In this document: positions 1-52,706 of the stretch, one piece after another
How positions within the stretch are numbered: position 1 is the first letter of the stretch
How the letters are laid out: each line of letters starts with the position of its first letter
Assembly (NCBI GenBank): GCA_014904845.1
Contig: MU119313.1
Coordinates: 1 to 64,000, forward strand
Length of the DNA stretch: 64,000 bases
DNA from: Acephala macrosclerotiorum
Lineage: Eukaryota; Ascomycota; Leotiomycetes; Helotiales; Mollisiaceae
Direction of reading: 5' to 3'
Made by a program: the position numbers and the translations under genes
Notes under the pieces: generated by a model
What the model saw: only the letters and a program-made list of their open reading frames with translations
Told to the model about the DNA's origin: nothing
The model's database searches: none

Positions 1-474
1 TTAATCTTTAAATTAAAAATTAATTTAAGAATTTAAAAGTACAAATTTTTGAATTATTATTTCTAAATAAAATTCGTTTTAAAAATTAGTTTTTATTTAT
101 ATCGTTTTCTCGTAAAAAAATTTTTATTTCAATTTTTATTCGAAATTTTACTCGTTTATTCGTTCTAATAAAATATATTTTTTAAATAAATACTTTTTTA
201 ATCGATTTTTTTCGATTGAAATTTTTTGTTTTAATTTTTTTTATATTATTTTTTAAAATTCGAAATTTATTTTAATTTTACTATTTCAATTTAAAAATAA
301 TTACAAATAATTCGCGAATTACAATTTTTAAAAAAATTAAAATTAAAATATAAAATAATAAAACAATTTCATTTTTTAATACTATAATTTTTTTTCTTTT
401 TCACATTAAAACTTTTTTTTTTATATTTCAATTTCTATTAAAAATAAAACCAATTACTATAAATAATCGTCGCG

Positions 475-510
<36 letters not shown>

Positions 511-6500: not shown

Positions 6501-9400
6501 AAAAATCGTTAAAATTAAATTGAATTTTAAAGTAATTATTTTTTCTATTTATTAAAATAAATTAAAATTTGTAATATTTTTTAAACTTTCGTTTAAATTA
6601 AACGAAATTTAATATAAAACGTATAAAAATCTTTTTTTTTTATTTTCGATTATTATTTAATATTTTAAACGCGAATTTAATATTAATAAAAATTTTAAAT
6701 TTAAATTTTTAATTTATATAATAATAATATATTTTTTAATTTTGAAAATTCTAATTTTTTATAATATATTATTTGAAATTAATATATTATATACAAATTA
6801 TATAATAAAATATTAACGCGATTTATTTTATATATTAAACGATATAAAAACGAAAAATATTCGTATTTTAAAAATCGTTATATAAAAACAAAAACGAATT
6901 AATAACGTTTTAATAAATTGTAATAATATATTAAATTTAATCGTAATATTTAATAATATTTATAAATAAATTAAATCGATAAATTTTATTAATTTAAGAT
7001 TACGATTATTTATAATTAGTAATTTCGTAAATCGTTTTTCAATTCGTTTATTAAAAAAATATTTAAATCGTTATTCGTATTTTCGTTTAATATTTTACGT
7101 ATTTTTTTATATATTTTAAATTCGTTATTATTGAAATTTATTTTCGTAAATAAATCGTTTTTTATTTTCGTAAAATATATTTTAATTTTTATAATATTTT
7201 CGAATTTGTATATTTTATTTAAATAATTATTACTATAAAAACAATAAATATATTTCGATAAAAAAAACTCGTTTTTAAAATGAATCGATTTTAATTTATA
7301 TTTAGTAATTACAATAAAAAATTTTATATTTGAATATATATTATTCGAAAATTTTATATTGAATTTTTTAATATAAATATTAAATATTCGTTTAATTTTC
7401 AAATAAATAAAAAAAAATTGTTTATTTTATTTATTATTAAAAAAACGTAATCGATTTTATTAGAAAATATTAAACAATATATAAAATAATATTCGATTTT
7501 GATTTTGATTAAAAAATCGAATAAATTTTTTATTAATTTAATTAAATAAAATTTTAATTAAAAAGTTTTTATTGTAAATTTTATATTTTAAAAATTTTAA
7601 ATAATTTATTTATTATAATAAAATTTAAATTTTTTTAAATTTTTTTTTTAATATATTTGATTTTTTTAATAATATACGTTTAAATATTATATTTTTGTAT
7701 AATATTGTATTTAAAATTTTCGATTTTTTTTTATTTTGAATTTATTAAAAATAAATTTTATTTTGAATTAATTAATTTATTTTTATATATTAAAACTTAT
7801 TTTATTAATTATTATAAAATTAAATTTTATATATTATTTTTACGTTTTTTTTTTTTAAATATTTTAATAAAATTAATAAAACAATTTTTTTATTATATAA
7901 ATAAATATAAATATAAATTTATTAAATAAATATTAAAAAAAAAAGTTTTATTTTCAAAATTATATAATTCGATATTTTCGAAATAAAATATTATTTTTTT
8001 AAATTTAAATATATTTTCGTTTTTTATATTATTTATTCGATAAAATTTTTTTTTAATATTTTGAATTCGATTTATTTATTTTTAAATTCGTTTTTAATTT
8101 GAATATATAAATTAAAACGATTTTATTGAATAAATTGAAATTAAAAAATTAATTTAATATTTATAGACTTTAAATCGATTTTTAATTCGATATTTATAAT
8201 TTTTATTTTAATATTTGTAATAATATTATATTCGAAAATTGTTTTATTGAAATTTTGAGAGAAAATTTTTATAATATTAAAAGATTTACTATTAATATAA
8301 TAAATACGAAAATTGATTATTTAAAATATAACGTGATTAAATATTTTAAAAGAAAATTCGATCGAATTAATTTGATTTTTGTAAATACGAATATCGATAT
8401 TTTTATTTCGATTAAAAATATTATTTTAAATTTAATTATTTATATACGAAATATTCGAATTATTATTCGATTAAAAAAAAAAATTTATTTTTTATAAAAT
8501 AATTTGTATTTGTTTAAACGTAACTTTTTCGAGAAATAAATTATTATTACGAAATATAATAACGATTTTATTTTTTAAAAAAAAATTATTAACGATTTAA
8601 TTTTTTAATAAATTAATTTTTTATTTGTTTTTTAAATATATTATACGAATAAAAATATAATTATCGAATAAAAAAAAAATTTTATAGTAAATTATTTATA
8701 ATTTAATTTTATTTTTATTAAAAAATATATTATTGAATTTAAATTCAATTATTTTTAAATAATAAATTTTATTATTAAATATAAAATTATAAAATATTTT
8801 TTTATTATTTTTTAAAATAATATTTATTAAAATCGTATACAAATAACGAATTTTTAATATTAAAATTAAAATAAAAATTCGATAAATTTTTTATATTATT
8901 TTTTTATTTTTATTTTTTTTTTGATTATAATTTTTTTATTTTTAAAATTCGTAAATTTTAATTGAATAATTTTATTAAATAATAATATATTATTTATAGT
9001 ATATTAACGTTTATTATTTTATAAATTATAATTATTATTTGTTATAATTTGTAAATTATTAAAAAAATCGATTAATAAAAATTTGTTTAATAATTTGAAA
9101 TTTTAATAGTATTATTATTAAAATAAAATTATATAAAATTGTAATTGTAAATTTTAATTGTTTGTAATCGATACGAATTGTTTAATATTGATTTTAAAAA
9201 GAATCGAAAAATAAAATTAATCGTTGAAACGAGTTTTTGATTCGTTGATCGATAATGTAATAAAGTTTTCGATAGTATTATTGAATGATACGAGATTATG
9301 TAAGGTTTAAATTGTAGATTCGAAAATTGATTTAGTGTCGATTAGTTTTAATCGGATACTAAAAAAAATCGGTTTAAATTTGTTTTTAGATTTGAGAACG
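1..9400. repeat. AT-rich RIP-type block, gene-free
   Basis: About 9.4 kb of extremely AT-rich sequence with homopolymer runs (a T run near 478-508) and no credible gene. The few open frames (for example 3494-3754 and 7016-7402) encode only K/N/I/F/Y-rich strings expected by chance at this composition. Nearly all remaining C residues are in CpG; CpA, CpT and CpC are almost gone over long stretches. This fits repeat-induced point mutation acting on old transposon copies. The right edge (about 9180-9480) is a gradient in which + strand C is depleted outside CpG while G remains common. No terminal repeats or coding remnants could be recognised inside. Confidence 0.85.
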
Positions 9401-15615: not shown

Positions 15616-17590
15616 TTACTGAAGGAAAGGACCAACAGCCTTTGACACAGCACTCAAGTCCTCAAAAACATGCCAATGTCCAATCTGCGGCAGCACGACG
15701 ATCTTCGCACCGTTTATTTCCCCAGCATACTTCTCACAGACAGCCGGAGGAGAGACTTTATCTTCATCACCAGTAACGATCAAAGTGCTTGCCTTGATCT
15801 GGCTCACGGGCAGAGCATCGACAGCACCAGCCAACGCCGTACATCCCTTCGCATATCCTTCTGGATCCTGCCCTAGGAGACTCAGTCTCGCAGCTGCAAT
15901 CCCGATTGGATTGTTGGTTTTTGAGTGAGTAGAAGTACCCGCTATAATAACAGCATCAACAACCGCAGCCATTCCTTGAGCTCTAACTGTGGCCGCGCGG
16001 GCGATAGAGCCGTTGCGACCTGCCTCTGGGACAGGGGAAGGTGGTGGTCCCAGTAACAAAAGTTTGGAAACGAGTTCAGGTTCCTGGATAGCGAGCGCGA
16101 GGGCGACGAGACATCCCATGCTGTGAGCTATTATTGTTGCGCCGCTGGTGATGTTGGCGTGTTGAGCCAAGGCGGCGAAGTCGGATGCATAGCTGGAGAT
16201 TGAGATGACTGATGCAGCGGATGTAGGCGAGAGTCCGTGGCCTTCTAGATCGAGTAGATGGAGGGAATGAGATTTATCTAGTCCAAGAGATGATATGAGT
16301 GGAGTGTAGAATTCTGACGAGCCTCCTAGGCCGTGGATGAATATTGTTGGAGGTCCGGATGCTATACCAGCTTGGCGGTAATAAAGTTCCTTTGAACTCA
16401 AGGAAGTGAGGCCGTATCCTCCACATGTTTTGGAGAGGTTACTAATCGGGATGCGAGATTCTTTTGCGAGACGGGAAATAGTTGTGTTTTGGGATGTCGG
16501 TTCGGCGATGGTGTTCTTGAGGACTCCGAGACCTGTAATGGAAACTTCGACGACGTCTCCTGGCTTGAGGAAGACGGGAGGCTTTTGACCAAATCCTACT
16601 CCGGCAGGTGTGCCTGTTGCGATGACATCTCCTGGTTGCAGGGTTTGGCCTTCTGAAAGTGTTTTGACGAGAAATGGCACTGAGAAGATGAGTTTGTCGC
16701 TAGTTGAATCCTGGCGGGGTTGTCCGTTGACATGTGTCTGAACTCGAAGGACTTCCGGAAGTTTGTTTGCTGGCACTGCAATCGGGCCCTGATTTGCAAG
16801 TCAGACATCTAATTTGAAACTTTAGTGAGGTTGCTTACCATAGGGCAGAACGTGTCTGGAGACTTCCCAATGTAGAACTGCTTGTGATCTCTTTGACGCT
16901 CTCTCGCAGTCACATCGTTGATGATTGTATAACCCCAGACATGGCTCATCGCATCAGCTTCCGCGATCTTTGAGCCTCCTTTTCCAATGATGACACCAAT
17001 TTCGCCTTCATAGTCAACCGTGTCTGTAAAGCCAGGATGTGGGAAAATTGGCTCCCCATGTGGGATGATACTCGTGGCCCGCTTGGTGAAGATCACAGGA
17101 TGAGTGGGTTGGTCAACTTTCTGTCACCGATTCAGCATCTAATCGGCAAGAAATGTGAGGAAAGTCTTCAAATGTTTTCAGACGAAAGTGGGGTGGAAAA
17201 AAAATTGCAATATCCCAAATGTGCAGGACATTCAGGAATGGAGGATAAACATACATCGCTGGAGTCATAGCCTGAAGTATTGAATTCGATAGCATGTTCA
17301 AAATAGTTCTTTCCCACTGCGAGAATGTCCCTGCCACCAATTGGGGCAAGAAGCTCAACGGAGGAAAGAGCGAATGGCTCGCCTGCTGGTTCGATATTCG
17401 ACTCTCCGATTTCGATGACTTGATAAAGGTTTGATAAAGGAGCTCCAGATGCGAAGCTTAAAGGTATAACTGAGGATTTCTCGAGGTCGAGATGGCCTAT
17501 TCGTGATTGTCCCAAAGCTTTGGGGTCACGATATGCGACATAGTTCGTGTACCCAGCTTGGGTGCCGTTGACATGGCCATCAGGAGCCAT
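15616..17590 (-). CDS. Fumarylacetoacetate-hydrolase-family / alpha-beta hydrolase fusion protein
   Basis: Two enzymes in one chain, about 596 aa. Exons: 17590-17255, 17120-16839 and 16788-15616, with phases that close exactly. The N-terminal half is an FAH/MhpD-type domain, with ILAVGKNYFEHAIEF, then the acidic metal site DYEGEIGVIIGKGG, INDVTARERQ, KSPDTFCPMGPIAVP and GDVIATGTPAGVG. From about residue 330 a complete alpha/beta hydrolase follows: oxyanion hole IFIHGLGGSS, nucleophile AHSMGC, acid in VTGDEDKVSP and histidine in GHWHVFED. In bacterial meta-cleavage pathways an FAH-like hydratase and a C-C-bond alpha/beta hydrolase act in sequence. A related paired activity on an aromatic catabolite is a guess; the substrate is unknown. 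It stands alone, divergent from the acetate-transporter gene. Confidence 0.88.
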
Positions 17591-26230: not shown

Positions 26231-28431
26231 TCATAACAAGATGACTTCATATCCAAGACTATTCATGGCCGACGTCCAATCCGGGTCTGCTGTTCCACCA
26301 CCATCGGCAAGCCTCCAACACTCCTTCAAGACATCGACAACCTTCCCGATACGACGAACCGCACCCGTCTCCTCTGCACTCGCCTTCCCCGCCAGGACCA
26401 TGAGGAACTCACGGTCTTCTCCTTCAGCCAAGCACCCTGCCAGGCACAGAGGCCACGTGAGGTAGTTCAGCGCTTGTGCAGAGGGCAGTTTGCGGAACAA
26501 GTCAACCGTGGCGCGGACTCGATTCGATACGTCGGGCACCCATCTGTGTGCCCCTGAAACGACAACGTGCAGATACACAAGCGCAGCGCTGGCAAATATG
26601 TCAATTACGTGCCGCAGGACGTGTGTATGGTATTGGGCCACCGTGCCCGTGGCCTCGTCCTGGATTCCCGCTGGTAGAAGGTTCGGGAAGCGGTCCGAAG
26701 TGCCTTCTCCCGACAAGCTGGCTCTCTCGCACTCCTCAAGCCGAGTCTCGATAGCGGTTGCGCGTTTGACTAGGTCGACGACACTCAGGCGGCCGGCCTC
26801 GGCCAGCTTCTTCTTCCACGCGTCGAGCGCGGCAATCTGGGAGATACTAGCGATGACGAGGTCTTGCCAGTGGTGGTAGCAGCACTCACTGCCTGTGCTT
26901 GCCGATGAAGGAACAGTGGTCGCAGGCCACTCGAGGCTGAGTAGAGACGGCGCCGTCCGCAGCGAGCAACTTAACATGGCATCACACCAACGGAGCGACA
27001 CGGCGATGAAACGCAGCGCTGCCGAGTTGACCACCCGCACATCTGACTGGCATATTTTCCCCAGGCCAGCGAGTAGTTTGAAGGCCGCACTCATATGCAC
27101 CCTACATGCTTCTGACTGCCCTCGCAGTGTCTACTATACCAGTCAGTTACCTTATCATTTCTTGGCCTTTCTTGGCGTGTTTGAAGAGGCGTTGCTGTAA
27201 GCGTTCTGCTTGGAATGGCTAAGCGACTCGAGACGAAGGAGCGAAACCCAACCTCACCTCTAAGAATATAAGCTGAAGAGTTGAGAAGCAGCAATCTAGT
27301 GCACTGGTAAAAGCGTCCCTGCCAGCAAATGCAATAGCAGCTGGGAATGTTTTGCGCAGCTCTAGAAGCGCAAGCTCATGATAGCAAGACACGTCTACGC
27401 TAGGGAGACAAACGGTAAGCAGATTGCTCTCAGCGACATGTCGAATTTTCCACGCACCTTGACCTAGCCCATACGAGCTCAGACTGAGCGTGGCCCAGTA
27501 CGATGCCCTGGTACGTGTGATCAGCACGTACTGCCAGGCACGATCTGTGGCCCTGGGCCCGCAGAAGGGTAATTGTAGCGTTTGCATGTTATCCAAGTAG
27601 TGGAGCAGCAGCCCAGCTTCCTCGAGCGTTGGCGGCGCGATGCAGTTGCTCCTGCAGGACGATCCCGATCCCGACATAGAGGATGACGAAGCAGAAGCAG
27701 AGGGCGAAGATGAAGACGTTTGAGAGCGTGAGCGGGATTGAGAGGGAGAGAGGGGGAGGGAGAGAGATTCCGTCTCCAGGCGTGGGGACATGGGCATGGG
27801 ATGGAACGACTGTAATTCTAGTTGCAGTTCATCGGTTGGCGAGGTCGACGGCGAACTGAACAGCTGCTGCAGTTCATGTTCCGATGGATAGGTATCCTGT
27901 CCGAGTCCCTGATCTTGATGGATAGCCAACGAGTATGAATGCGCTTCCATCTGCCAAGCTCCGAACGCCTCTTCCCCAGCGGTCAGCTCCGAGATTGTTA
28001 AGTCCGGAATACCCTGACTCTGGTACGTCGCCATCGTGGCCTCCACTGACCAGTCAGGCTCGAGAGACGCGTTCTCCTGTGTGGATAATGACAGATTTGC
28101 TGGTCGTGATGTTGACTGCTCGGAGCTCTTGGATGCCCCCGAGAGACTCTTCCTCTCTCGGACTGCTTGCTTCGTCTGCTCCGCCCGCATCTTCTCCTGG
28201 TAACCGCCGTCCATCCAGAACGGCCGCTGTGCATATCCATCGCACGTTAACTGCAATTTGCTACACCTATTACGACAGACGAAGTTAGTTTATGATTATC
28301 TGCGTCTGGATCCGAGAATGAAGGTGCAATTGGCGTACATACCTCAGACATACGGGCTTGGTCTCATCGCATTTCTTGCGACGAAGCCTGCAAGTCCAAC
28401 AGCCCGTCGAGCTCCGATTTTTGGTTGCCAT
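26231..28431 (-). CDS. Zn2Cys6 fungal transcription factor
   Basis: Binuclear zinc-cluster regulator, about 660 aa, three exons: 28431-28343, 28266-27258 and 27115-26231. The 76-nt first intron splits the zinc cluster; spliced, it gives C11-X2-C14-X6-C21-X6-C28-X2-C31-X6-C38 with the basic RLRRKK between. A long Ser/Pro/Gln-rich linker follows (a Ser-rich run at about residues 180-230). The C-terminal alpha-helical region resembles the Fungal_trans_2 middle homology domain ([36 protein letters not shown]). The second intron as drawn is 142 nt and might hide a small exon. The ATG chosen is 16 codons inside the longest frame because [12 protein letters not shown] is the usual start form. The target genes are unknown. 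Confidence 0.88.
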
Positions 28432-28479
28432 TGATGCAGACCATGGCACGAAAAGCGTACATGCATGTTCAACCCGCAA

Positions 28480-28876
28480 ACGAGGCCGGTGGTGTTATAT
28501 ATATATCACAATCTCAATCGCCACTATCGAGATCTTGCGAGCAACATATGCAATTCGGAGCAAAATTCGCCGATAGGAACGAAATGATGCAGGAAGAATG
28601 AAGCTTAACTTATTCGAGGACGACATCGGAATATAGAATCGACCCGCTCGGAAGGTCGACCAGAAAGGTGTTCGTTCGTCTGTTACCCCTCCTTATCCAT
28701 AGGGTGTGGTTCGTCTTCGTTCTTCGTTCTTCGTTCTTCGTTCTTCGTTCTTCGTCTCCTTCCGAAGGCGCAGTTCAGCTGAAAGCGCAATTCAGCCGAA
28801 GGCGCCGTCGAAACGCATCGATAGTAAGACCTACGCCGCACCCGTGCCGTTACGAGACTCCCCCCGCGCTCGACGA
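28480..28876. other. Promoter region with CGTTCTT heptamer tandem repeat
   Basis: Upstream of the zinc-cluster gene. It contains about five tandem copies of a 7-bp unit CGTTCTT at roughly 28716-28754, and a degenerate GAAGGCGC/AGTTCAGC duplication just after. There is no gene on either strand. Confidence 0.55.
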
Positions 28877-28878
28877 TA

Positions 28879-29250
28879 CGGAGAACGCGGTCAAAAGTCT
28901 GGGTCTACAGGGTATGTGCCCTGTAATTGCCCTGTAATGTCTCAAGCCATGCCCTGAAAGGTGATCGTCCACAGAACTCACTGTAAATACGCCTCAACCC
29001 ACTAAAGAACAGCGCTGTAACTGCCCTATAAGGCCCCAAGCTATGCTTTGTAAAGTAATTATCCACAAAACCCACTGTAAATACGCCTCGACCCACTTAA
29101 GAACAGGCTCTCAAGCTCTGAGGAGGAGTAGAATTATGAAGGAATGCCTCAAGCGAGCCAATCAAAGGAGATTACAGGGCTTGCGTGAGACATTATAGGG
29201 CATTATAGGGCACATACCCTGTAGACCCAGACTTTTGACCGCGTTCTCCG
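28879..29250. mobile_element. MITE with about 65-bp terminal inverted repeats, TA-flanked
   Basis: 372-bp element between TA at 28877-28878 and TA at 29251-29252. The left end reads CGGAGAACGCGGTCAAAAGT then CTGGGTCTACAGGG, and continues matching the complement of the right end for about 65 bases through TATGTGCCCT and AATGTCTCA. The interior has no ORF but holds two imperfect copies of a block around ACTGTAAATACGCCTC (near 28980 and 29078). The ends resemble those of the 23186-25413 transposon (CG.AGAA....GGCAAAAAGT....ACTACAGGG), suggesting a non-autonomous relative. Confidence 0.88.
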
Positions 29251-31557: not shown

Positions 31558-32370
31558 ATGGCTAGAGATTCCATCACCTTAAGCAAAGAAGACGACAGCA
31601 CAACAGACGCCCTGCTCTACCGCCGCGAATACGCACCACCGAAATGGTTGGCCCGCCATAGCAGTACCTTCTGGCCATGGAAAAACAAAGAAATCGAGTA
31701 CTCCGCAACAAGCACCAACAGCTCCGACGACGAGCTATCTCTCGACCCCAGAACGCTCCCCACTAGATCTTGGCGGTCCCAGAAAACCTTCCGAGTCGCA
31801 GCCACAGTCCTGAGCATCCTGTGTCTCGCAGCCTATGTCCTCGCCACGGCACCAATGCTGCTATCTGCTGCACTCGCCCATCGTCGATTCACATGTGGCT
31901 CCACACTCGACGAAGCCCTCGCTCGCGGCTGCACCTTCGATCCCATGACTGTCCAATGGCTCCCTCCCCAATGTTCGCGTGCCGGCCTCGACGAGTTCCT
32001 CGTCGCACATGGAACCCATACTCCCTACCGAAAACGCTCCAAGTCTTCTTACCCGGATCAAATTGCCAACGAGTCGACTTGGCGCTATTACACGGACGAA
32101 ACCCAAGCCGTGGAGTACGTTGATGGGCTGCAGGCCGTGCCGATTGGCCATTATATGTATTACACCACTCGAGGCGAACACCTCGCACACTGTACCTACA
32201 TTCTGATCCGGGGTGCAGAGGCTCGTGCTGCGGGCGAGCGTCTCGATCTCTTGAGTGGGGATTTGGAGCACACGAGGCATTGTGCGCTCTTCTTGTTCGA
32301 GTACGCAAGACAGGACCCGCATTTCGACACAGTGAACACGCCGGGTGATGTTATGCTGGGGGCTTGCTGA
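31558..32370 (+). CDS. Single-pass membrane protein with two HxxHC motifs (UstYa/DUF3328-like superfamily)
   Basis: 270 aa, single exon. The cytosolic N-terminus is followed by one membrane segment (about residues 78-107). The outer part has CGSTLDEALARGCTFD, QWLPPQC and two HxxHC motifs, HLAHC at 208-212 and HTRHC at 238-242. Paired HxxHC motifs are the signature of UstYa-type oxidases that cyclise RiPP cores. The CG...GC.FD block marks a broader fungal family whose members are mostly uncharacterised, so the oxidase role is inferred. It lies 4 kb from the repeat precursor and may belong to the same cluster. Confidence 0.7.
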   Translation: MARDSITLSKEDDSTTDALLYRREYAPPKWLARHSSTFWPWKNKEIEYSATSTNSSDDELSLDPRTLPTRSWRSQKTFRVAATVLSILCLAAYVLATAPMLLSAALAHRRFTCGSTLDEALARGCTFDPMTVQWLPPQCSRAGLDEFLVAHGTHTPYRKRSKSSYPDQIANESTWRYYTDETQAVEYVDGLQAVPIGHYMYYTTRGEHLAHCTYILIRGAEARAAGERLDLLSGDLEHTRHCALFLFEYARQDPHFDTVNTPGDVMLGAC

Positions 32371-32750: not shown

Positions 32751-33948
32751 TCACTCTACATACTTCACAACCAACTTCCTCGCCGACACTTTCCCAGCCT
32801 GTAGATCCTTCACGCCCTGCAAAATCCCATCCAGCCCACCCGGTCGTACTTCATGCGGGTGCGGTCTCAGCCTACCCTCGTCCAACAAGCGTGCAATGTA
32901 GCGGTAGAAGGTGTACGCAAAGTCCGCATCCGCCGCGGCTCGCTCCTCGCTGATCCAAGCGTGCTTGGACCCATACGCGCTCGAGACCAGAGTGAAACTC
33001 AACTCAACTCTCACCGGCGGGGTCCACGCCTTCGGCCCCGGGATGTCCAGCGCGGGTTCCCAATCCAACACCTCTCCCCAGTCCAGCATGTTGAGCTGTC
33101 CGCCGGGAGCAAGTACACCGCCAGCCGCGACCCAGCTGTCCCGCCCGCCTGCACAGTCCAGCGCGTGAAGGAGCTTCTTCCCGCCCAATGCAGCGGTGAT
33201 CTCGGCTTGGATGTACTCAGCATTGCCCGCGTGGTAGTCGATGATGTGAGTAGCCGCATCCAAGGCCTTGACGAAGTCGATCCCCGCGCCGGCAACGGTG
33301 ATAATGGGGCTCAGACCGCACAGTTTCGCGAGCTGCAGTGCGAATCCACCCACGGCAGTGGCGCCGCCGTAGATCAGAACGGGAATATCCTTGACGCCAG
33401 GGGTGGACGTGTCAGGCGCGGGGAGGCGCAACGCCTGGAACAGAGCGATCGCCGCTGTCATGCTGGCCAGTGGCAGCGTGGCGCCCGCCTCGAAAGATAC
33501 GGCGGGTGGCAGGAGGAAGGTCGTTGATGCAAGCGCGAGAGCGTACGGTGCGTAGCCTCCGGATGGCTCGCCCAGACGGTGGAATCCTGCCACACGATCC
33601 CCGGGCTTGTATTCGAAAACATCAGACCCCACTGCCTCGATGATGCCAGCAAGGTCGTCTCCAGCATTGAGAGCCTCGCTCTCGTTGCAATCCTCGGTAT
33701 ACTGAAAAGCAAGGTTAGCATGACTCCTTCGATTGTCCATGTAGAAAGACAAATGAGGGGCTAAAAAATGTAAACGAAGCTACCTTCCAGTCTTTGGGAT
33801 TCAGTCCAGCCGCAAAGACTTTGATCAAGACTTCTTTAGGCCCTGGTTTCCTGAGCACGTAATCTTTAGCGATAGATAGATGAAAACGCTTCGTTTTGGC
33901 CAAAATTTCAAAACCCAAACAAACGTATCTTGGAAGGAAGGGAAACAT
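32751..33948 (-). CDS. MDR-family zinc-less alcohol dehydrogenase / LovC-like enoyl reductase
   Basis: Medium-chain dehydrogenase/reductase, about 371 aa. Exons are 33948-33784 and 33701-32751, joined by an 82-nt intron with phase kept. The GroES-like N-domain is KPGPKEVLIKVFAAGLNPKDWK, AGDDLAGIIEAVGSDV and YKPGDRVAGF. The Rossmann part has IYGGATAVGGFALQLAKLCG (NADPH site). The C-terminus carries HPHEVRPGGLDGILQGVKDL, typical of LovC/ToxD/quinone-reductase relatives often found in secondary-metabolite clusters. No structural-zinc cysteine cluster is present. The 5' end is uncertain: a MEELVIYG-type start at about 34030 in another frame might be a true first exon. The substrate is unknown. 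Confidence 0.85.
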
Positions 33949-35513
33949 CCACGCACGGGATTTCGACTATTTGCCGGCGAGCAGTCCATTCTGGAACTCC
34001 GTAGATGACAAGTTCCTCCATCTTTCCATCCATCCTAGATAGGTGGCTTTTAATGTCCGTACGGTACTCCCGAAGGTGAAAGTTGCTGAAAATGCGCAAC
34101 GCCCTGGATTGTTTTTCGATAGGATTAGATCGTGCTTTACGTTTCAATTCCTCTGAGGATAGTATTAACGAGTCCGATTCATGAAGAGTAGAAATAGGCC
34201 AGCCTTAAATATATAAGAGGTCCTTTAGCGTGTGCACGTGAGATGCACGTGGCTTTCTATCATGTAAGCATACGATACAACATCCCCCCTTTTTAATCGA
34301 GTTGTTATGATATATATGACAATCACGTAATAGCTTTGAGGACACACTAAACATCCTTCTTAGCAATTTCTTTATAGCGCAGTAGTTGCGGAAAAATCTC
34401 ACAGTTTCTCGACTTGTGAGACTCGTCGTTGCCGGAAAGTCTGTTCTATCTGTCGAAACTTTCTTTGAACAGAGTCAAAATAGGGGCTTAACAATAGTTC
34501 TCGTTTACTTAACATCGTAGACTTTTCATATTACGCATTAAAAGTATGCAATATAAGTGAGCTTTCGCCGCGCGAGTACATTTACACCAGACTTCCATTT
34601 CTCGTAATTCAACTTTCAACGACTGAAATTTCAGTATAAATCGATATTTATAGTAGCTATAGTGTAAAGATTGGTGGGTCTAAGAGGAGAGTATGGTCGG
34701 TGTATGCGAGTTTGTAGGTGGTAAAGGTAAAGAGGGTATATGTAAAGGCAGAGCGTTGCTACATATAATTCAGAGGTTAATTGATATATTGGCTTTAGAC
34801 TACCGGAGATCAATCTGAGAAGAGCTTACAATAATGTATGTTCTCGGTCAAATAGCTGTGAAGCCTAGATTATCGAGATGATTCATCGTTGTAGGAGGTC
34901 AATATAATGTGGTATGTGAAGGTGAAGTAGAATGTGAAGCCTGTTTGTAAATTGAAAGGGTATTTACCTTTCTCACCCCATGTCGTCACTTCTAAGTACT
35001 TTCTACCAACCGGAGGAGGAAAGTCCAGGTGTCTCTTAAGATGCAGGAATTGGAAGGACTTGCTCTACTTCACAACATGTATCTCTTTCATAAAGCCCAA
35101 GATTCTAGATAGACCAGTTATCATTTCCAGCTAGTTTTGGACTGCATCCATCTATTTATCATTTCAATACACACGAAAAGGTTCGAACATTTTCTAAAGG
35201 CAAGAAATTCGATGGCAATGTGATACAAGCTGGAAAGGAGAAAATTCATTCATTCGCGTAACTATCAATCTCTATCTCGATATAGAGTCTGAGACAACAC
35301 TCGGCGACTTCTAGAAAAGTGAGAAACAGGAAAGGGAAAAGACAACCAAGTTTTTCGTTATTCCAATTCGTAACCAGATCTTGAATCCCAAGCAAGCAGA
35401 CAACTTCAATTGAACCCTTCTCCCCCGGCCCGATGTCCGACCTCGACCTTAGACGCACAGCAATCGGATGAGGAATTGAATGTTCATTGCAAAACCCGAC
35501 CTCCATAAGCCAC
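33949..35513. other. 1.5-kb intergenic region, no gene seen
   Basis: AT-leaning stretch between the MDR gene and the 3' end of the repeat-precursor gene. Frames are short, with no domains. It holds the MDR promoter and the precursor's 3' untranslated region; nothing else is supported. Confidence 0.5.
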
Positions 35514-36181
35514 CTACTCGTTGTCGACAGACGTGGTCTGATCATCGTTAGTAAGCAAATCGGGAAAGGTTGGGAGACTGCATTCGGGATGCACTCTGAA
35601 AGCACAGGTGAACTTACAAACATGCCCTTAAGGTCCTCTCCACGAGCCTCAACGTCCACGGAGGTGCTGAACATGCCCTTCAAATCCTCTCCTCGAACCT
35701 TGACTGGAGCTGCGTCTTGAGAAGTGCTGAACATGCCCTTGAGATCCTCTCCGCGAGTCTCAACGTCCATAGAGGTGCTGAACATGCCCTTCAAATCCTC
35801 ACCACGCTTCTCGGCATCGTGGGAGGTAGTGAACATGCCTTTAAGGTCTTCACCTCGTGCCTCAACATCAACAGAAGTGGAAAACATGCCCTTCAAATCC
35901 TCACCACGCTTCGCAGTATCGTGGGAAGTAGTGAACATGCCCTTGAGATCCTCACCACGCTTCTCAGAGTCATGAGAAGTGCTAAACATGCCCTTGAGAT
36001 CCTCTCCGCGCTTTTCAGTATCAACGGAGGTGCTGAACATGCCCTTGAGATCTTCTCCGCGTTTCTCGGCGTCATGAGAAGTGGTGAACATGCCCTTGAG
36101 ATCCTCTCCGGGAACAGGGGCTGCGAGGCTGCCAGTGCCAAAGATGGCAACGGCAATGAGGGTCAAGCGCATGGTGTGCAT
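35514..36181 (-). CDS. Secreted tandem-repeat precursor peptide (dikaritin/Kex2-processed type)
   Basis: 195 aa from two exons: 36181-35618 and 35537-35514. The 80-nt intron (GTAAGT...CTAAC...CAG) interrupts the tenth repeat, and splicing gives ...GEDLKGMF|TTSVDNE-stop. Signal peptide about residues 1-21 (MHTMRLTLIAVAIFGTGSLA, then APVP). Ten copies of GEDLKGMF follow: seven 17-residue units, one of 20, one of 17 and the last truncated at 15. Units end in EKR/AKR (repeats 1-4 and 6), suited to Kex2, or in EAR, TR and VR. The octapeptide is invariant while positions after it vary (S/T, H/V/M/Q). This layout, beside a UstYa gene, is that of ustiloxin/phomopsin-type RiPP precursors. A plain Kex2-processed repeat protein is the main alternative. 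Confidence 0.85.
35618..36109 (-). repeat. 51-bp coding tandem repeat array, 9 full units plus part of a tenth
   Basis: DNA repeats of 51 bp (one of 60 bp) encode the GEDLKGMF units. The core-coding part is highly similar in all copies; the spacer part varies. The array lies inside exon 1 of the precursor gene and ends at the intron donor. Antisense open frames over the array are shadows. Confidence 0.9.
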
Positions 36182-36986
36182 TTTGAGATGAGTCGAGGAC
36201 TTGTAATTCCGTGAAAAGGGAAGTGAGTTGGTGAAGAGGCGATGTAAAAACGAGGTAGATGTGAAGGCTTGAGTATTCGACTGTTGTTCGATGTGAGCTT
36301 GAGTGAAGTATTGGTAGAGGGGGAATTAGAGGTCTTATATCTTGGGAGAATTGAGCATAATTTAGTGATCAGTGAACTTTGAGGCGCACCGCTCTTGCTA
36401 GGAGTTGCATCTTGCAACCGCCTGCACTAACCTCGTTACTCCCATGGCGACTGAGCAAGCTCGACGATGTGATCGTACGCATTCGAATGATTCCTCTCGC
36501 GATAGTGTGTGTGGATCGCTTGCTGTCCCCAAACGGACATTTGGCGAAGCGCGAAATCGACGACGCGACGCCAGATCTCCACGAAGGCGCCGCCGGGTTG
36601 ATGTGATATAATCGCGCGAGAGGAAATGAAGCCGCGGATTATGAGTACAGTATAGCAGCGCGGCACGTGCCGAGAGTTCGCCGCTGAGAGCCTGAGACGA
36701 GAGCGCCGCCGAGAACTTCGGTAAATCAACCAATCAAACGAAGCAACGCCGACTGTCAACTGCATGCTTGCAAGTGACATCGAGAGCATTGCGCGGTTGA
36801 GGGCAGGACGAAACGCATGTCCGTCTCGAAGGCCACTGATGGAAAATCCGACCATGAATTTTTGGAGTGTTCTTCTTTCACTCCTCTATGGGCCCCTCAT
36901 CCTTTCTTGCTGCATCTCACATCCACATTGGCCTCTCCTGTCCTTTACTCAATTACAAACCAGTCTCAAAAACGACGGCATCGAAC
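36182..36986. promoter_or_regulatory. Divergent promoter region between precursor and UstYa genes
   Basis: About 800 bases shared by the minus-strand precursor and the plus-strand UstYa gene. The part near the precursor is AT-rich, and the middle (36440-36740) is GC-rich with many CG dinucleotides. Open frames here lack conserved content. Co-regulation is suggested only by the arrangement. Confidence 0.45.
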
Positions 36987-37978
36987 ATGTTTAAGAGCTA
37001 CTTGTTCAGCAAAGAGCATCAATACATGCCTGTTTCTGTACAGAGCGACGGACAATGCCAATTGCCTATGAGCAATGACAACAAGGCCATTCGACGACGA
37101 GCCTTCGTCTATGCCTTGCTTGTTCTGGAGGCACTGCATTTGATTCTTTTTCTTGCTGTGTACGCTGGCATGCACGACTTCTCGGACATCCACTTGAGCC
37201 ATGAGCTGGATACCTGTGCGTCGATTCTCCCTCCAACGACTTCTTGGAGACGCTAAATTGACCGATGACTTCAACCTGTGGTAGACTTTGCTCTTTCCGA
37301 GTTCAACACGGTCAAGACATTCTATGGCGACTGGTCTTTGATGAACCGCAGCACTGAGTCCGATGCTCTTTTCGAGCAAATCCAAACGTGTATGTACGGC
37401 AAGGCTCTAGCCAGCCATGCTTTGTCTAAATTCCGAAGCGAAATTAGCTAATTGACGTATTTTCTTCTTCAGCGGACGGGGTTGTTGCCATAGACACCGA
37501 ATGGGCCCTTCTTCATGGCTATGCGCCCTCTGTAGCACATCCCCAGGATACTACCAAGAGCATCTATCAGATCGACATGTTTCACTCGATGCATTGCGTG
37601 GTAAGAGACCTTTTCCGCCCTCCAAGAAATTGGGAATCTCATCCCGCATTATCCATGAATACCCGAAAATTGGGACACTGCTGACACGTCGGTGCAATCG
37701 CACCGTACCAGTACCGCCTTCGTAACAAATTAACCTCTTCTCTATCGCTGCATGATTGGCCACGCAATGACGAGCACACGCTCCATTGCCTCGATTACCT
37801 TCGGGAGCAGCTGATGTGCAATTCAGATCTCACGCTTGAGGGCACCGACGACCTTCTCCACTTCAATAAAAACAGCGGTCACGTGTGCCGCAATAGCGAT
37901 GCAGTAACAAGCTGGGCTGCTGAGCATCACTGGGACGGCCATCGGCAATTCCTTATTGATACAGAGGGGTATCAGTAG
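36987..37978 (+). CDS. UstYa-family (DUF3328) oxidase-like membrane protein
   Basis: 242 aa from four exons: 36987-37215, 37285-37389, 37473-37600 and 37712-37978. All phases close and donors are good (GTATGT, GTAAGA). There is one membrane helix at about residues 40-61 after a basic RRR. The outer domain carries FHSMHC (HxxHC at 149-153, split from the next exon one residue later) and EHTLHCLDYLREQLMC (HxxHC at 176-180), then SDLTLEG, the usual end-block. In ustiloxin, phomopsin, asperipin and cyclochlorotine pathways such proteins perform oxidative cyclisation or hydroxylation of the core peptide. The direct neighbour of the repeat precursor, transcribed away from it, makes a tailoring role on GEDLKGMF units likely but unproven. 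Confidence 0.9.
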
Positions 37979-38782: not shown

Positions 38783-40734
38783 ATGGATCTTGACGGAGAC
38801 ATGGATGACGGCCTCGACCTGATCTGGGGGGAGCCTGAGCCAAAGATCGAGTCGCCTGAATCCTTAACTCTTCCGACGAGGAGTGTTGGATTCCTGCTTC
38901 TCTTGACGGCTGGTCTTGGTGGGCAAGTCTTCAAAAACATCGCCATTCTTATGAATTGAATATTTGATCAAGGATTGGACTAACTTGAAGGACAGATTGC
39001 AAAGCATCTTTGCCTTGATCTTCTCGAACGGCTCCGTGAGTATTTTCCCTGTCTTCTGTCCCCGAGTGCGAAAATTTCACTGCTGACTGGTAGAGAAAGG
39101 CACACTTGAGCAGTCTCGGCTTGAGCAAGCCAGTCCTCGCACTAGTCTGGATGGCCGGCCCAGTTGCAGGTATGACACTGCAGCCATACTTCGGGATCTG
39201 CAGTGATCAGTGCCGCTCGCCCTGGGGCCGACGACGGCCTTTCATTGCATGTGGAACGCTGGCAGCTGTGGTGTCTTTAATTGGCCTGGCTTCGGCCGAG
39301 AAGTTATCACAGGTGCTCGTCCACCTTTGGGCCAGTGATAGCTCCCACGCAGAAGCAGCAGCGCGCTCGCTGGCAGCAGGAGTAGCCGTCGTCTTTTTCG
39401 TGGTGCTCAATGTCGCTGTACAGCCAATACAAGGCGGAGTACGAGCACTTCTCGCTGACATTTGCCCACAAGCCCAGCAGCCGGCAGTCAATGCCGTGGC
39501 GGGAATCGTTGTCAGTGCCTCGAATATTTTCAGCTACGCTCTGGGCTTCATCGATTTACCACGCCTAGGACCCCTCCGCGCACTTGGAGGCAACTCACAG
39601 TTTTCCATCCTTTGTGTTGTTACGTCGGCAACGCTCGTGGTCTCCATAGCCCTGACATGCTTAGCTGTTCGGGAGAGGAATCCGATGCTGGATGAGGATG
39701 TGCTCCAAAAGCAGCTTGGCGCTGAGGAGGACTCAGGGGACACTGTGTACGCCATGGCGTTGTACCTCTGCACCAGCTTTCCACGCCTGCCCCAGCAAGT
39801 GCGGCAGGTGTGCAAGGTTCAGTTCTTCTCCTGGATGGGCTGGTTTCCGTTCTTGTTTTATATGACGACATATATCGGCAATAGGTGTAAGCAAAGCAAT
39901 TTCTTACAACTGCACTGCAGTCCATACCCGTAGCCGTGACGTCTAGATAATTCGCATGGCTGACCAGAAAACATAGACAAATCTAGCATGGCTACTGCGT
40001 CAGGTCGGCCATCTCCAACCGACCAAGAGGTACAGGCCAGGTCCACGAGAATCGGCTCCTTCGGGCTGCTGCTCTTCGCACTGGTGGCACTGGTGGCCGG
40101 TGCTATTCTTCCTCTCGCCCACAAACACGCCAGCTGTCAAGATAGCCGGAAAGTGGTTCCTTCAGGTATAAATGTCACCATCCGCCGGTTCGGAAGCATT
40201 CGATGCTTGTGGATCATGTCACACGTTCTATTTGCCTGTTGCATGTTAGCCACCTTCTTTATATCGTCGCTCCAAGGTGTCTGCATCCTTGTTGGTCTCA
40301 GTGGCATCAGCTGGGCCATAACCATATGGGCACCTTACGCCATAATCAGCACCCATATCTCGCACGACGGCGACGACGGTGGTACGTATTTGCACTGTTC
40401 CGAGCCCCTGGTACTTCACTACAGTGAGTCCGAAGAAGAGGAGGATGATCAACAATTCCAAGGTCGATACGGAGAAAAGGGTGATGGTAACGATGAAACC
40501 TGTGAACGCCGGCCGGGAATTGCGTTTGGCCTACATAACGCGGCAATTGCAGGACCGCAGATCGTAGCTGCTGCCGCTTGCAGTCTCATTTTCTGGATGT
40601 TGGAAGGGTCATCGCAAGACGGAATAGTCTGGGCGCTGCGAGCTGGAGGGCTGGCTGCGCTCGGGGCAGCTGTTCTGGCAAGGGGGGTTAGGGAGGAGGA
40701 TTCTGGGCTCGGACCAGGAAGGGGGAGCGGCTGA
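38783..40734 (+). CDS. SLC45/sucrose-type MFS transporter
   Basis: About 579 aa in four exons: 38783-38926, 38991-39035, 39094-39886 and 39977-40734. Phases close. The first donor (GTCTTC) is weak; the others are good. It is an MFS protein of the GPH/SLC45 type with about 12 helices. The diagnostic loop SPWGRRRPFI follows SLGLSKPVLALVWMAGPVAG, and FPFLFYMTTYIGNR, GISWAITIWAPYAIIS and GIAFGLHNAAIAGPQIVAA lie further on. Family members carry sugars (sucrose, maltose) with protons in plants, yeasts and animals. An acidic insert of about 60 residues near residues 465-500 (SEEEEDD) lies in a cytosolic loop. It is next to the UstYa gene in the same direction. Export of the cluster product is possible, but sugar uptake is equally plausible. 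Confidence 0.87.
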
Positions 40735-47929: not shown

Positions 47930-50170
47930 ATACGAGAAAACGATTATAAATATATATTTTTAAATTTGAAATTAAATATATATATATATTTTTTATTAAA
48001 ATTTTTATTTTTAATAATTTACTCGCTTTTTTATTTCGTTTTATATTTCTTTTGAAATTTTATTTTGTTTTTATATATTAAAAAAATAATTATCGATAGT
48101 AAAATTTTATTTAATAATAATATTAAATATAATAATAAAATTTTTAAACGAAAATTTTTTTTTACGAAATCGAAATATTATATAAATATATTTAAAAAGT
48201 TTTTATAATTTTTTTCGAATTAAAAATTAAAATAATTAATTTAATAAATAAATTTTTAACTCGAATTATTAATTCAACGTTTATTATTAAAAAATAAAAA
48301 AATAAAAATAAATTCGTTTTATATTTGTTTTTTTATTATTATTTTAATATTTAAACGTTTTTTAATTTTAATCGATTTACGTATAAAAAAAATTTATATA
48401 TTATAATTTATAAATCGAAAATAAATATAATTATAAAAATCGAAATATAAAAAAATATATTATTAAAATAATAATAATTAATATTTTTTTAATATTTATT
48501 AAATTATTATATTTAAAATAATAAATAATTAAATAATTTTATAATTTTTATTTATATTTAATTATATAAAATATTAATTTTTATATTAAAAATATTAATT
48601 TTAAATATTTATAATTTTTAATTTAATAATAATAAATTTAATTTTTTTAAATATAATTAAATCGATTAAAAATTTATTATTAAATTTATTAAATTAATTT
48701 AAATTGAAATAATAAATTTTACGTTTAAAACGTTTAAAGTATTTAATTTAAATTAATTAAAATATATAAATTTAAAATATTAATTTTTTAAACGAAAAAT
48801 ATTAAAATTTTCGATTATATACGTTTATTTTCAATTATAATTATTTAATCGCAATTAATTATTAAATATTTTACTCGATTATATTTATAAAATATATTAT
48901 ACGTTAATTATTTTATTAAATTTTAAATTTTAAAAATAATACGATTTAAAGTATTTTTAAATTAATAAATAAAACGTATATTGAAAATTTTTAATCGAAT
49001 TAATATTTAAATTTTATAATAATATATTTTAATATATATATAATAAAATTAATTAAAAATATTAAAATAAAATTTTATAATATAAAAAATTCTATATATA
49101 AAATTTTAAATAATTTAATTTTAAATAATTTAATTTTAAATAATTTAATTATAAATTTATTAAATATTTTAATTTTAATATATTTAAAATATTTAAAACG
49201 CTTAAAAAAATAAATTATTATTTAATTAATTTAATTAAACGATTTTAATTTAATCGTAATTTAATAAACTTAATAAATAGCGTTTTAAATTAAAATTAAA
49301 CTAAATAAAAAATTGTACATTAATTCGATTATTAGTAGATTTTTAATTAAATTAAAATTATATTTTTCGATTTTTATATATTTATTAAATTTAATAATTT
49401 ATAATTAATTAATAGATTATTTATTTTATTTATTTATTTTATTTTTAATTTATTATTAATAATTATTTAATTAATTACGAAATAATTAAATTTTTTTTAA
49501 ATAATTTGTTTTTTATAAAAAAATATTTAAAATAATTAATATATTTTTAAAAAAAAAAATCGAAAATTTATAAAAATAAATTAAAATTATTAAAAAATTT
49601 AAAAATTTAAAAAAAAAATAATATAAATTTTTTTTAAAATTTATATTTATTATATAAAATAATAATATTTATAAAAAGTAAATAAAAAAATTTAAAAAAA
49701 AAAATTTAAATTTAAATTTATTTATTTAAAAATTATATTAAAAACGAATTTTTAAACGATAAACTTTTTTTTATATTTTTATTCGTTATATAATTAAAAA
49801 CGTATAAATATTAAATAATATTTATTTAAATTCGAATTAAAATTTTTAATTTTATTATTATTTATTAAAATAATAAATATATTTAAATTATAATTTATAA
49901 AATTTAAATATTAAAAAATAAAAAGTTTATTATTAATATAATTATTTATATAAATTTATATTCGTTATACGAATATTTAATTAAATTAAAAACGATTAAA
50001 AAAACGTTTTATAATTAATATTATAATTTTTTATTAATCGTATAAACGTAAAAATTTATTAATAATTTAATAAATATTATAATAAAATTAATATTTAATA
50101 AAATTTAAAAAAAAAAAAATTTAATTTTAATAAATTTTAAAAGTATTATTATTTTTTAATTTAATTAAAT
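47930..50170. repeat. Second AT-rich RIP-type block
   Basis: About 2.2 kb of near-pure A/T in which the remaining C and G are almost all CpG, on both strands. No open frames of interest occur. The right border is sharp: ordinary sequence resumes at about 50185 (ACATCTATTAATAAGCTATG). The left border is graded over about 100 bases. It is probably one or more heavily mutated transposons. It separates the sulfhydrylase gene from a HET-domain gene. Confidence 0.85.
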
Positions 50171-50483
50171 TAAATTAATTTTACATCTATTAATAAGCTA
50201 TGCACTACGCCCGATAAAGTGGAGCACTTAGGCCGAGAGAGTATGCCTAGAAGATTGACCGCTATGTGAAGTCACTACTAAGCCTCCACAACATTTCAAG
50301 GCTGCGGCGATCCCTCGACCCGGACTATAGGGACCGTGATGATGACCGTCTACTGCCCAGCCTCAGAACTCAACCTCTTCTTTCATCTTCCTTCAATTAT
50401 TATTGTTGCCTCGCTTGCATCATTTAATTTCCTTTAAGCATTGTTGTGTGAGGGTTTTGCATGTTACTACGTTTTCTTTCACA

Positions 50484-52706
50484 ATGCGCTTACTCGATAC
50501 GAAAACGCTCAAACTGCACTCATTTTTGAGCAATAGCCGAGGCCATATCCCTGATTACGCTATCCTTTCCCACAGATGGGATAACAAAGAAGTCTCGTTT
50601 CAAAACCTGGAGAGTGGTCGAGGAAAGAGCACGGAAGGCTATATAAAGATCGAAGCATGTTGCGCGCAAGCAAGGCCAGATGGTTGGGAGTATGTGTGGG
50701 TAGACTCTTGCTGCATAGACAAAACCAGTAGCGCCGAGCTGTCAGAGGCTATCAACTCAATGTATCAGTGGTACAAGAACGCGCAGGTGTGCTATGCATA
50801 TTTGCGCGATGTCGATACTCAAGGAGATATTGCTGGTTTAGATGGTGTCGGAAGCCAATCAGGCATTGATAGTGGAAGCGATATTGGTTATAGTGGTGAC
50901 AGTCGGAAACAATTCAAAAACAGCACATGGTTCATGAGAGGCTGGACACTTCAGGAGTTGCTGGCTCCATCAAGAGTAGTCTTCTTCGACTGCAATTGGA
51001 TTGACATTGGAACTAAGAGTAGTTTGGAAGAAGTTATCTCTGATATCACTGGTATCGAGGACTTCCTGTTTTATGAGAGCGCCTGCGTGGCGCAAAAGAT
51101 GTCCTGGGCTGCTGGGAGAAAGACCACGAGAGTGGAAGATGAAGCGTACTGTTTGATGGGGCTCTTCGGGGTCAACATGCCTCTTCTCTATGGTGAAGGA
51201 AACAATGCTTTCATGAGATTACAGCAGGAAATCATCAAGACATCCGATGATGAATCCATCTTCGCCTGGTCCTCGAGAACTGGACGCGGTGGCCTCCTCG
51301 CGGAATCTCCACGAGCTTTTCTCTCCTCGGGTGGGGTGAGACCAATGCCAACAGTGTCAATCAATACAATATTCTACGAAGAGAGGCCGCCATTTACCAT
51401 GACCAATCGAGGACTACACATCTCTCTGTTTCTTATCCCAGCTATCTCACTTTACGGATTAGTGACTGATGAAGAGCTTCTTGGCGGGGGCAATTTGAGT
51501 GCATCGCAAGAATTCATAGCACCGCTCAATTGTCTCTGGGCAGAGAGTGATACCATTGTACCGGCCATATTCCTACGAGAAGATTCGGATGGTCGATATC
51601 GAAGGGCGCATTGTCGCGAATTGCTCTCCCTGGACTTGTCTGAAGCAGAGATCAGATGCCGGCAATGGAGTGACGAGCCCCAGGAGCAGGATGGTTATGT
51701 GCTACCTATCCCTGGCCAAAAGTCAGTGTATGTGAAACAAGGTCTTTCTACCGTCCTTTACGGAATGCCATCGCGTACACATGAAGCCGAATTCATTTTC
51801 ATCAACACATCCATGCTGGTCGAGCATAACTTCTCGAGGCTCTGTAATCACCCAGAGAAAGGACCAGAAGGATCACCCTGGAGCGTGACCAACGACCAGG
51901 AATTAATGCTCACCGCAGTATGGGAGGTTTTCGAGGACATGTATCCGGAAGTTCATTTTGCAAATCATAAATCAGAGGAAACGATCGTACTTCTTCTTGG
52001 CGCCTCTCGAAATCATAACCCTTGGATGGTCCTGGTAGTTGTGGACGGTTGCCCGACTATGAGTAGTAGTCTTATCTCTGACTTAATAAGTCCAGCAACT
52101 ATGGTAGGTGGATCATCACATTGGAAGATTCGCTCCCATTCGATGGATGTAATGGGGTCTGATTCAGAGGACTCGCTGAAATATGGTTTCGGAGAGGGCC
52201 CCGCAAAGACGCCAAACAGAGCTTCCAGGTTTACAGGTGTTGATCGCATTTCGAAGCCGTTGAAGAATGGTATGTCAGTTTCGGCATCCCTGAGACCAAT
52301 TACAAAGGGGGGGGAGTTGAGATTTGTTGTTGATATCAATATTGATCCACTTGGCACGATCCGATGGCCGACTCCTACTTGGTTTCGAGGATTGGAGACA
52401 CAAGTGAAAGACATTGTTTCAAAACATGAGAAAACTGGAGGAAAGCTGTTGCAGGAATCACGGAATGCACAAGTGGAGGGAGGAGGAAGTGAACAAGCCC
52501 AGGGGAAGTGGTCTTTACCCCTGAGATCCATTCCCAAAGAGCCTGAACGAGTTGCCCAAGACAATGCAAGCTACAAAGGCAGAGATGAAGGAGTATACGC
52601 GGCAAGAGATTGGACCGGGGTGCCCGAAGAGATTGTTATGGAATGGTCAAGAAAGTTGGAACCTTTCCCTTCCTTAGAACGTTACGAAGATGGGAAAGAT
52701 TTCTAG
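50484..52706 (+). CDS. HET-domain (heterokaryon incompatibility) protein
   Basis: 740 aa, no intron. The N-terminal HET domain has its three usual blocks: YAILSHRWDNKEVSFQ (about residues 25-40), WVDSCCIDKTSSAELSEAIN with SMYQWYKNAQVCYAYL (about 75-110) and WFMRGWTLQELLAP, then the following VEDEAYCLMGLFGVNMPLLYGEG and AFMRLQQEIIK. This is the HET-D/E type that triggers programmed cell death when unlike fungal individuals fuse. The C-terminal 450 residues have no recognised NACHT or WD repeats. The ATG at 50484 is chosen because MRLLDTKT is the usual HET start. It begins about 300 bases from the AT-rich block. Confidence 0.92.
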   Translation: MRLLDTKTLKLHSFLSNSRGHIPDYAILSHRWDNKEVSFQNLESGRGKSTEGYIKIEACCAQARPDGWEYVWVDSCCIDKTSSAELSEAINSMYQWYKNAQVCYAYLRDVDTQGDIAGLDGVGSQSGIDSGSDIGYSGDSRKQFKNSTWFMRGWTLQELLAPSRVVFFDCNWIDIGTKSSLEEVISDITGIEDFLFYESACVAQKMSWAAGRKTTRVEDEAYCLMGLFGVNMPLLYGEGNNAFMRLQQEIIKTSDDESIFAWSSRTGRGGLLAESPRAFLSSGGVRPMPTVSINTIFYEERPPFTMTNRGLHISLFLIPAISLYGLVTDEELLGGGNLSASQEFIAPLNCLWAESDTIVPAIFLREDSDGRYRRAHCRELLSLDLSEAEIRCRQWSDEPQEQDGYVLPIPGQKSVYVKQGLSTVLYGMPSRTHEAEFIFINTSMLVEHNFSRLCNHPEKGPEGSPWSVTNDQELMLTAVWEVFEDMYPEVHFANHKSEETIVLLLGASRNHNPWMVLVVVDGCPTMSSSLISDLISPATMVGGSSHWKIRSHSMDVMGSDSEDSLKYGFGEGPAKTPNRASRFTGVDRISKPLKNGMSVSASLRPITKGGELRFVVDINIDPLGTIRWPTPTWFRGLETQVKDIVSKHEKTGGKLLQESRNAQVEGGGSEQAQGKWSLPLRSIPKEPERVAQDNASYKGRDEGVYAARDWTGVPEEIVMEWSRKLEPFPSLERYEDGKDF

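What the first reader, a model, noticed from the sequence alone, without database searches (positions are those of the whole stretch)
35514..36181. Secreted precursor with ten GEDLKGMF repeats: candidate new RiPP family
Seen: signal peptide, ten tandem copies of an invariant octapeptide, spacers ending in KR in five units, and a clean intron that completes the last repeat. Known: dikaritin precursors (ustiloxin, phomopsin, asperipin) have exactly this plan and are cut by Kex2. Inference: GEDLKGMFxTS-type peptides are released and modified. I do not know this core from any described peptide. It lacks Tyr, so if it is cyclised, Phe and the adjacent Ser/Thr, or Met, would be the reacting positions, unlike the Tyr-based ustiloxins.
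Basis: partly seen in the sequence, partly recalled or inferred. Interest (0 to 1): 0.87.

Follow-up and report, generated by a model that had tools for sequence, protein, structure and literature searches.

The report
Fungal repeat-peptide precursor beside oxidase gene
A fungal gene encodes a secreted protein made of ten near-identical peptide units, and next to it lies a gene of the copper-oxidase kind that modifies such peptides, so it probably makes a small modified peptide of a known general type but with an undescribed sequence.

Summary
A 195-residue, probably secreted protein on the minus strand (36181-35514) carries ten units with invariant GEDLKGMF; an 80-nt intron (35538-35617) completes the last unit as GEDLKGMFTTSVDNE-stop. 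The conserved part is longer, GEDLKGMF[ST]TSxD, and octapeptide codons differ only synonymously. A UstYa (DUF3328) gene with both HxxHC motifs lies 805 bp away, divergent. [quoted passage not shown] UstYa-linked KEPs without Tyr are already documented (PMC7329392): a new member of a known kind, not a new RiPP class. The product is unknown. Less expected: ORF 31558-32370 is a divergent membrane protein with two HxxHC motifs and no Pfam family, resembling UstYa in a profile comparison (inconclusive by itself). Its relatives here lie within 7 kb of UstYa matches at 11 of 13 places, at four loci, window included, with a repeat-precursor candidate. It may be a second oxidase, a UstYa partner or an accessory. 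Relatives in other fungi could not be searched.

The parts
35618..36181 (-). Precursor exon 1: signal-like stretch, APVP, units 1-9 and GEDLKGMF of unit 10
35538..35617 (-). Predicted 80-nt intron (GTAAGT...CTTACTAAC...CAG)
35514..35537 (-). Precursor exon 2: TTSVDNE and stop; unit 10 has no basic end and the length of a KR unit without its KR
36182..36986 (.). 805-bp region between the two divergent start codons, perhaps a shared promoter (inference)
36987..37978 (+). UstYa/DUF3328 gene, 4 exons predicted by eye and script (36987-37215, 37285-37389, 37473-37600, 37712-37978; a second acceptor at 37775 is possible), 242 aa; HSMHC and HTLHC motifs
   Evidence: (PF11807, E 5.6e-19)
31558..32370 (+). 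Protein X, 270 aa: one hydrophobic segment, CG..EA...GC.FD.M...W.PP.C-like motif, then HLAHC and HTRHC; no Pfam family; possible divergent relative of UstYa
32754..33966 (-). Zinc-type alcohol dehydrogenase/enoyl reductase: 32754-33779 has the Pfam hits; a first exon within 33718-33966 is my reading (no Pfam hit alone). Membership in the cluster unproven
   Evidence: PF00107, PF08240
26234..28494 (-). Probable Zn2Cys6 transcription factor: Fungal_trans_2 at 26234-27130 and Zn_clus at 28288-28494; that these and the frame between (no hit) are one gene is inference. Membership in the cluster unproven
39094..40734 (+). Probable MFS transporter: Pfam hits (PUCC, MFS_2) on 39094-39930 only; 39964-40731 has no hit and is joined by reading. 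Perhaps not part of the cluster

Best explanation
The gene encodes a Kex2-processed repeat protein. It enters the secretory pathway by its signal peptide. Kex2 cuts after the KR (and probably after the single Arg) at unit ends, and a carboxypeptidase trims the basic residues, giving about ten copies of a 15-16-mer GEDLKGMF[ST]TSxDx[E/A] (19 for unit 8); a dipeptidyl aminopeptidase could remove the APVP before unit 1. The membrane-bound UstYa oxidase encoded next door then oxidises the invariant stretch in a secretory organelle with a two-copper centre and O2, by cross-linking, desaturation or hydroxylation. The second HxxHC protein X may take part. The product is secreted as a small peptide, likely a signal or defence molecule. 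Shown: repeats, gene structure, codon conservation, UstYa with both motifs, co-location of X relatives with UstYa. Inferred: cutting, trimming, modification, role.
For: Ten units, signal-like N-terminus and splice completion. Positions 1-8, 10, 11 and 13 invariant with synonymous divergence. The last unit ends where a trimmed KR unit would end. Neighbouring UstYa: in an alignment with nine paralogues H149, H152, C153, H179, C180, C190, C213 are invariant and H176 nearly so. Repeat-precursor candidates were found near UstYa on 6 of 15 contigs scanned, so the pairing recurs. One match to the proprotein-convertase P domain, as expected for Kex2. DUF3328 mechanism: PMC12435403 (whole text); desaturation by UstYa homologues: passages of PMC10512285.
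Against: Four of nine junctions are not dibasic, so cutting there is uncertain; on the C234 candidate all nine junctions seen end in a single Arg, which suggests but does not prove such sites are used. There is no Tyr, the residue linked in ustiloxin, phomopsin and asperipin. DUF3328 genes also occur in non-RiPP clusters (PMC12048977, discussion). No homologue in another species, no transcript and no product was seen. The conserved stretch is longer than the YAIG/YVIP cores.
Confidence: 0.72

Rival explanations
1. A KEP whose peptides are released by Kex2 but stay linear, acting as a pheromone-like signal, an effector or a surface peptide; the UstYa gene is a neighbour by chance or serves another product.
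For: 6120 of 7878 KEPs have no DUF3328 neighbour, and known linear KEP products exist (PMC7329392). No Tyr in the repeat. APVP before unit 1 recalls the XA/XP sites of pheromone precursors. DUF3328 is not exclusive to RiPP clusters.
Against: UstYa is the adjacent divergent gene; in the survey DUF3328 counts peak at the position next to the KEP, and pheromone KEPs lack one with three exceptions. Only about 0.66% of this genome lies within 7 kb of a UstYa match.
Confidence: 0.2
2. An unprocessed repetitive secreted or cell-wall protein; the basic residues are not cut.
For: Four of nine junctions lack a dibasic site.
Against: Five KR sites in register, no Cys, last unit ending like a trimmed unit, UstYa neighbour.
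Confidence: 0.06
3. The repeat lies on a non-coding or chance frame.
For: An antisense frame over the same stretch is open too (35717-36214).
Against: Signal-like start, only synonymous differences in the octapeptide, and exact splice completion.
Confidence: 0.02

Closest known systems
[quoted passage not shown]
   Same: Signal peptide, tandem core repeats, KR sites, UstYa homologue gene in the cluster
   Different: No Tyr in the core; conserved stretch of 13 positions against the 4-residue YAIG/YVIP cores; no tyrosinase match on the contig; one PF11807 match on the contig plus the divergent HxxHC protein; product unknown
KEPs accompanied by DUF3328 but without Tyr (types G-3, G-8 with HH, P-3 with W in Umemura 2020)
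   Same: UstYa-linked, Tyr-less repeats
   Different: GEDLKGMF[ST]TSxD has neither HH nor W; the string is in no held paper (main texts only)
DUF3328 copper enzymes CctR, ApnU, AprY (PMC12435403)
   Same: The window's UstYa has HxxHC(x)nHxxHC and a hydrophobic N-terminal segment
   Different: Substrate and reaction unknown here; protein X has the two motifs but no Pfam UstYa match
Fungal alpha-pheromone precursors
   Same: Signal peptide, repeats, Kex2 sites; one APVP stretch before unit 1
   Different: No XA/XP spacers at the start of the other units; no pheromone-like core (core recalled, not searched); UstYa neighbour

Membership tests
Kex2-processed repeat protein (KEP) | N-terminal signal peptide | tested here: met
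   Hydrophobic stretch LTLIAVAIFGTGSLA, mean Kyte-Doolittle 1.99; by composition only, no signal-peptide predictor was available
Kex2-processed repeat protein (KEP) | Tandem repeats separated by Kex2 sites | tested here: met
   Ten repeats; 5 of 9 junctions KR, the other 4 single Arg
Kex2-processed repeat protein (KEP) | Peptides actually released | not testable with these tools
   needs peptidomics
Dikaritin (UstYa-cyclised KEP RiPP) | UstYa/DUF3328 gene close to the precursor | tested here: met
   PF11807, E 5.6e-19, 805 bp away, divergent
Dikaritin (UstYa-cyclised KEP RiPP) | Tyr in the core as the linked residue, as in ustiloxin, phomopsin, asperipin-2a | tested here: not met
   No Tyr in the 195-aa precursor
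Dikaritin (UstYa-cyclised KEP RiPP) | Cyclised or otherwise oxidised product | not testable with these tools
   needs LC-MS/MS and UstYa deletion
Ustiloxin/phomopsin subtype | YxIx core and tyrosinase in the cluster | tested here: not met
   Core GEDLKGMF; 0 of 42 listed tyrosinase matches lie on contig C112
UstYa/DUF3328 (the window's 242-aa protein) | Pfam profile and HxxHC(x)nHxxHC | tested here: met
   the TM segment is by reading only
UstYa/DUF3328 (protein X) | Pfam UstYa profile match | tested here: not met
   Window X: no family at E 0.1; among 6 X members one hits UstYa weakly, E 0.067
UstYa/DUF3328 (protein X) | Two HxxHC motifs, profile relationship | tested here: inconclusive
   Both motifs in 4 of 6 X members, the window's included. 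hhalign probability 38% and 47%; score 35.9 against a maximum of 20.4 in 200 column shuffles and 13.1 reversed

The most novel reading that the evidence does not exclude
Protein X founds an unrecognised branch of HxxHC copper proteins that works together with UstYa in fungal RiPP loci, as heterodimer partner, second oxidase, or the copper/electron-delivery accessory postulated for DUF3328 enzymes (PMC12435403). Here the pair oxidises a Tyr-free core, giving Phe-, Met- or Thr-centred chemistry not known from dikaritins.
Probability: 0.25. Interest if true: 0.72.

Novelty: new member of a known kind. Interest (0 to 1): 0.47.

Why it matters
Only five dikaritins had been reported by 2022 (PMC10512285), although 1758 precursor genes with UstYa neighbours were counted. 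A compact locus with a Tyr-free, long and strictly conserved core is a good test of what UstYa enzymes do without Tyr. The co-located X proteins give genome miners a possible new marker and a concrete candidate for the accessory that was proposed for DUF3328 copper enzymes.

Tried and rejected
Homologues of the precursor and of UstYa in the large protein database could not be queried, so conservation across fungi is untested. Strings GEDLKG and DLKGMF, EDLKGM, KGMFTTS, KGMFSTS: 0 papers in the held library's main texts. No second copy of the precursor was found in the assembly (E up to 10; one candidate scored). Pfam hits of the precursor are all below the curated cut-offs (best DUF5832, E 0.00043, 21 against 26.7 bits) and are taken as chance. 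No relative of the window's UstYa among solved structures at E up to 1. Single-sequence AlphaFold of X was poor (mean pLDDT 43.8, pTM 0.27); no fold search was made with it. It places helices at 73-108, 205-224 and 236-252, the last two over the HxxHC motifs, but this is not counted as evidence. A first scan for other precursors (10 fetched loci sets and the window) listed a C313 frame plus chance repeats, and my note said none; the second scan, with another score and the stretches fetched later, replaces it. From its list of 40 I chose candidates by eye and left out lysine/glutamine-rich, proline-rich, antisense and other low-complexity frames. Species identification through rRNA was tried (weak; unanswered) and dropped.

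Full report
The window is bases 1-64000 of a 171-kb contig (C112) of a 69.7-Mb assembly of an unnamed organism. By gene content it is a fungus (introns, Zn2Cys6 domain, UstYa, HET domain). Blocks of 6-10% G+C lie at 1-8 kb and 48-50 kb, and the locus lies in the gene-rich stretch between them.

Precursor. On the minus strand, 36181 to 35514, a 195-residue protein starts with a hydrophobic signal-like stretch and continues with ten units. All ten hold GEDLKGMF. Position 9 is S or T; positions 10 (T), 11 (S) and 13 (D) never vary; positions 12 and 14 vary; position 15 is E in 8 of 10. Codons of the octapeptide differ only synonymously (pS 0.61), so the copies have diverged in DNA while the peptide was held constant. 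Five of nine inner junctions are KR and four end in a single Arg (AR, TR, VR, AR). Unit 1 follows APVP, not a Kex2 site. The intron at 35538-35617 has standard signals, and among 19 candidate AG acceptors it alone restores the unit pattern. It gives a last unit GEDLKGMFTTSVDNE that ends at the stop codon, the length of a KR unit after removal of KR. Only one such gene was found in the assembly.

Neighbour. The divergent gene at 36987-37978 encodes a 242-aa UstYa protein (PF11807, E 5.6e-19, 69.3 bits against a cut-off of 25). It has a hydrophobic, presumably membrane-spanning N-terminal segment and the motifs HSMHC and HTLHC; in an alignment with nine UstYa sequences of the same genome H149, H152, C153, H179, C180, C190 and C213 are invariant and H176 nearly so. 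In the DUF3328 enzyme CctR this double motif binds two coppers per monomer; the enzyme is a disulfide-linked dimer, uses O2 and needs electrons (PMC12435403, whole text). UstYa homologues also desaturate residues in phomopsin biosynthesis (PMC10512285, passages). So a Tyr-free core is no obstacle to oxidation, but the reaction here is unknown. DUF3328 genes also occur in polyketide and nonribosomal-peptide clusters (PMC12048977, outline and first part of the discussion).

How ordinary is it? A survey found 7878 KEPs in 1345 of 1461 strains; 1758 (22%) have a DUF3328 gene near, most often in the adjacent position, and 65.6% of the repeats of these contain Tyr, so about a third do not (PMC7329392: abstract, sections 6, 7, 9 and passages). 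The plan is therefore known, and the sequence is new as far as the main texts of the held papers go. In this genome 59 listed UstYa matches fall on 27 contigs (lower bounds). I had sequence around a UstYa match on 15 of the 27 (10, C254, C293 and C41, C243, and the window). A repeat-precursor candidate is present on 6: C112 (window), C234 (EPHHTEAQ..., resembling the described HH kind), C313 (VGIYSYYAP...KR), C41 (DIESIRKR), C243 (AGADEYGAKWAKR) and C293 (SLEYNDNNAVEKR). A signal-like start was seen by reading for C313, C41 and C243, not for C234 and C293. C293, C41 and C243 were fetched because X was known there, and C254 because it holds the closest UstYa paralogue, so 6 of 15 is not an unbiased rate.

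Protein X. ORF 31558-32370 has no Pfam family, one hydrophobic segment and two HxxHC motifs (HLAHC, HTRHC). Six members from this genome share a CG..EA...GC.FD.M...W.PP.C-like motif; four have both HxxHC motifs, one is a fragment without the second, and one has HYEKC in its place. Profile comparison with UstYa aligns both motifs (probability 38%, E 3e-4; score 35.9 against mean 11.7 and maximum 20.4 in 200 column shuffles, reversed 13.1). Column shuffling breaks the motifs themselves, so this shows motif similarity beyond chance and suggests, but does not prove, kinship. Three searches give 13 places. Eleven lie within 7 kb of a UstYa match; one (C37) is 19 kb away and about 1.4 kb from a tyrosinase match; one (C47) has no UstYa match on its contig. 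About 0.66% of the genome lies that close to UstYa; by contig, 7 of 9 with a binomial tail of about 2e-12 at twice that fraction. If X and UstYa are related, tandem duplication could add to this co-location, and some places may be exons of one gene or degenerate copies. X sits at 7 of the 27 UstYa contigs within 7 kb, so it is not a general companion. Whether it is an oxidase, a dimer partner or the accessory proposed for CctR is open.

Other genes near: an alcohol dehydrogenase (32754-33966), a probable Zn2Cys6 factor (26234-28494) and a probable MFS transporter (39094-40734). None is proved to belong to the cluster. None of the 42 listed tyrosinase matches lies on C112.

Verdict. The best reasons to look further are the X protein and the Tyr-free core.

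Noticed in passing
31558-32370: Divergent double-HxxHC membrane protein without Pfam family; relatives in the same genome lie within 7 kb of UstYa matches at 11 of 13 places.
   Followed up: yes
L040:3938-4417, L041:5609-6013, L039:8238-8459, L019:1781-2113, L023:3662-4486: Five further repeat-precursor candidates near UstYa genes, with repeats DIESIR, AGADEYGAKWA, SLEYNDNNAVE, VGIYSYYAP and EPHHTEAQ.
   Followed up: partly
L023:3662-4486: All nine junctions seen in the EPHH candidate end in a single Arg after A, E or D (three read DVEVEAR), like units 5 and 9 of the window's precursor (DVEAR), hinting at single-Arg cleavage in this fungus.
   Followed up: partly
36110-36120: APVP lies between the signal-like stretch and unit 1, a possible dipeptidyl-aminopeptidase (XP) trimming site.
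   Followed up: no
1-8000 and 48000-50000: Blocks of 6-10% G+C on both sides of the locus, perhaps repeat-induced point mutation islands.
   Followed up: no
50403-52706: HET (heterokaryon incompatibility) domain protein next to an AT-rich block.
   Followed up: no
28921-29106: Two 94-bp direct repeats, 81% matches, between the transcription factor frames and protein X.
   Followed up: no
15616-16776: One open frame holds the end of a fumarylacetoacetate hydrolase followed by an alpha/beta hydrolase, a fusion or a neighbour read through.
   Followed up: no
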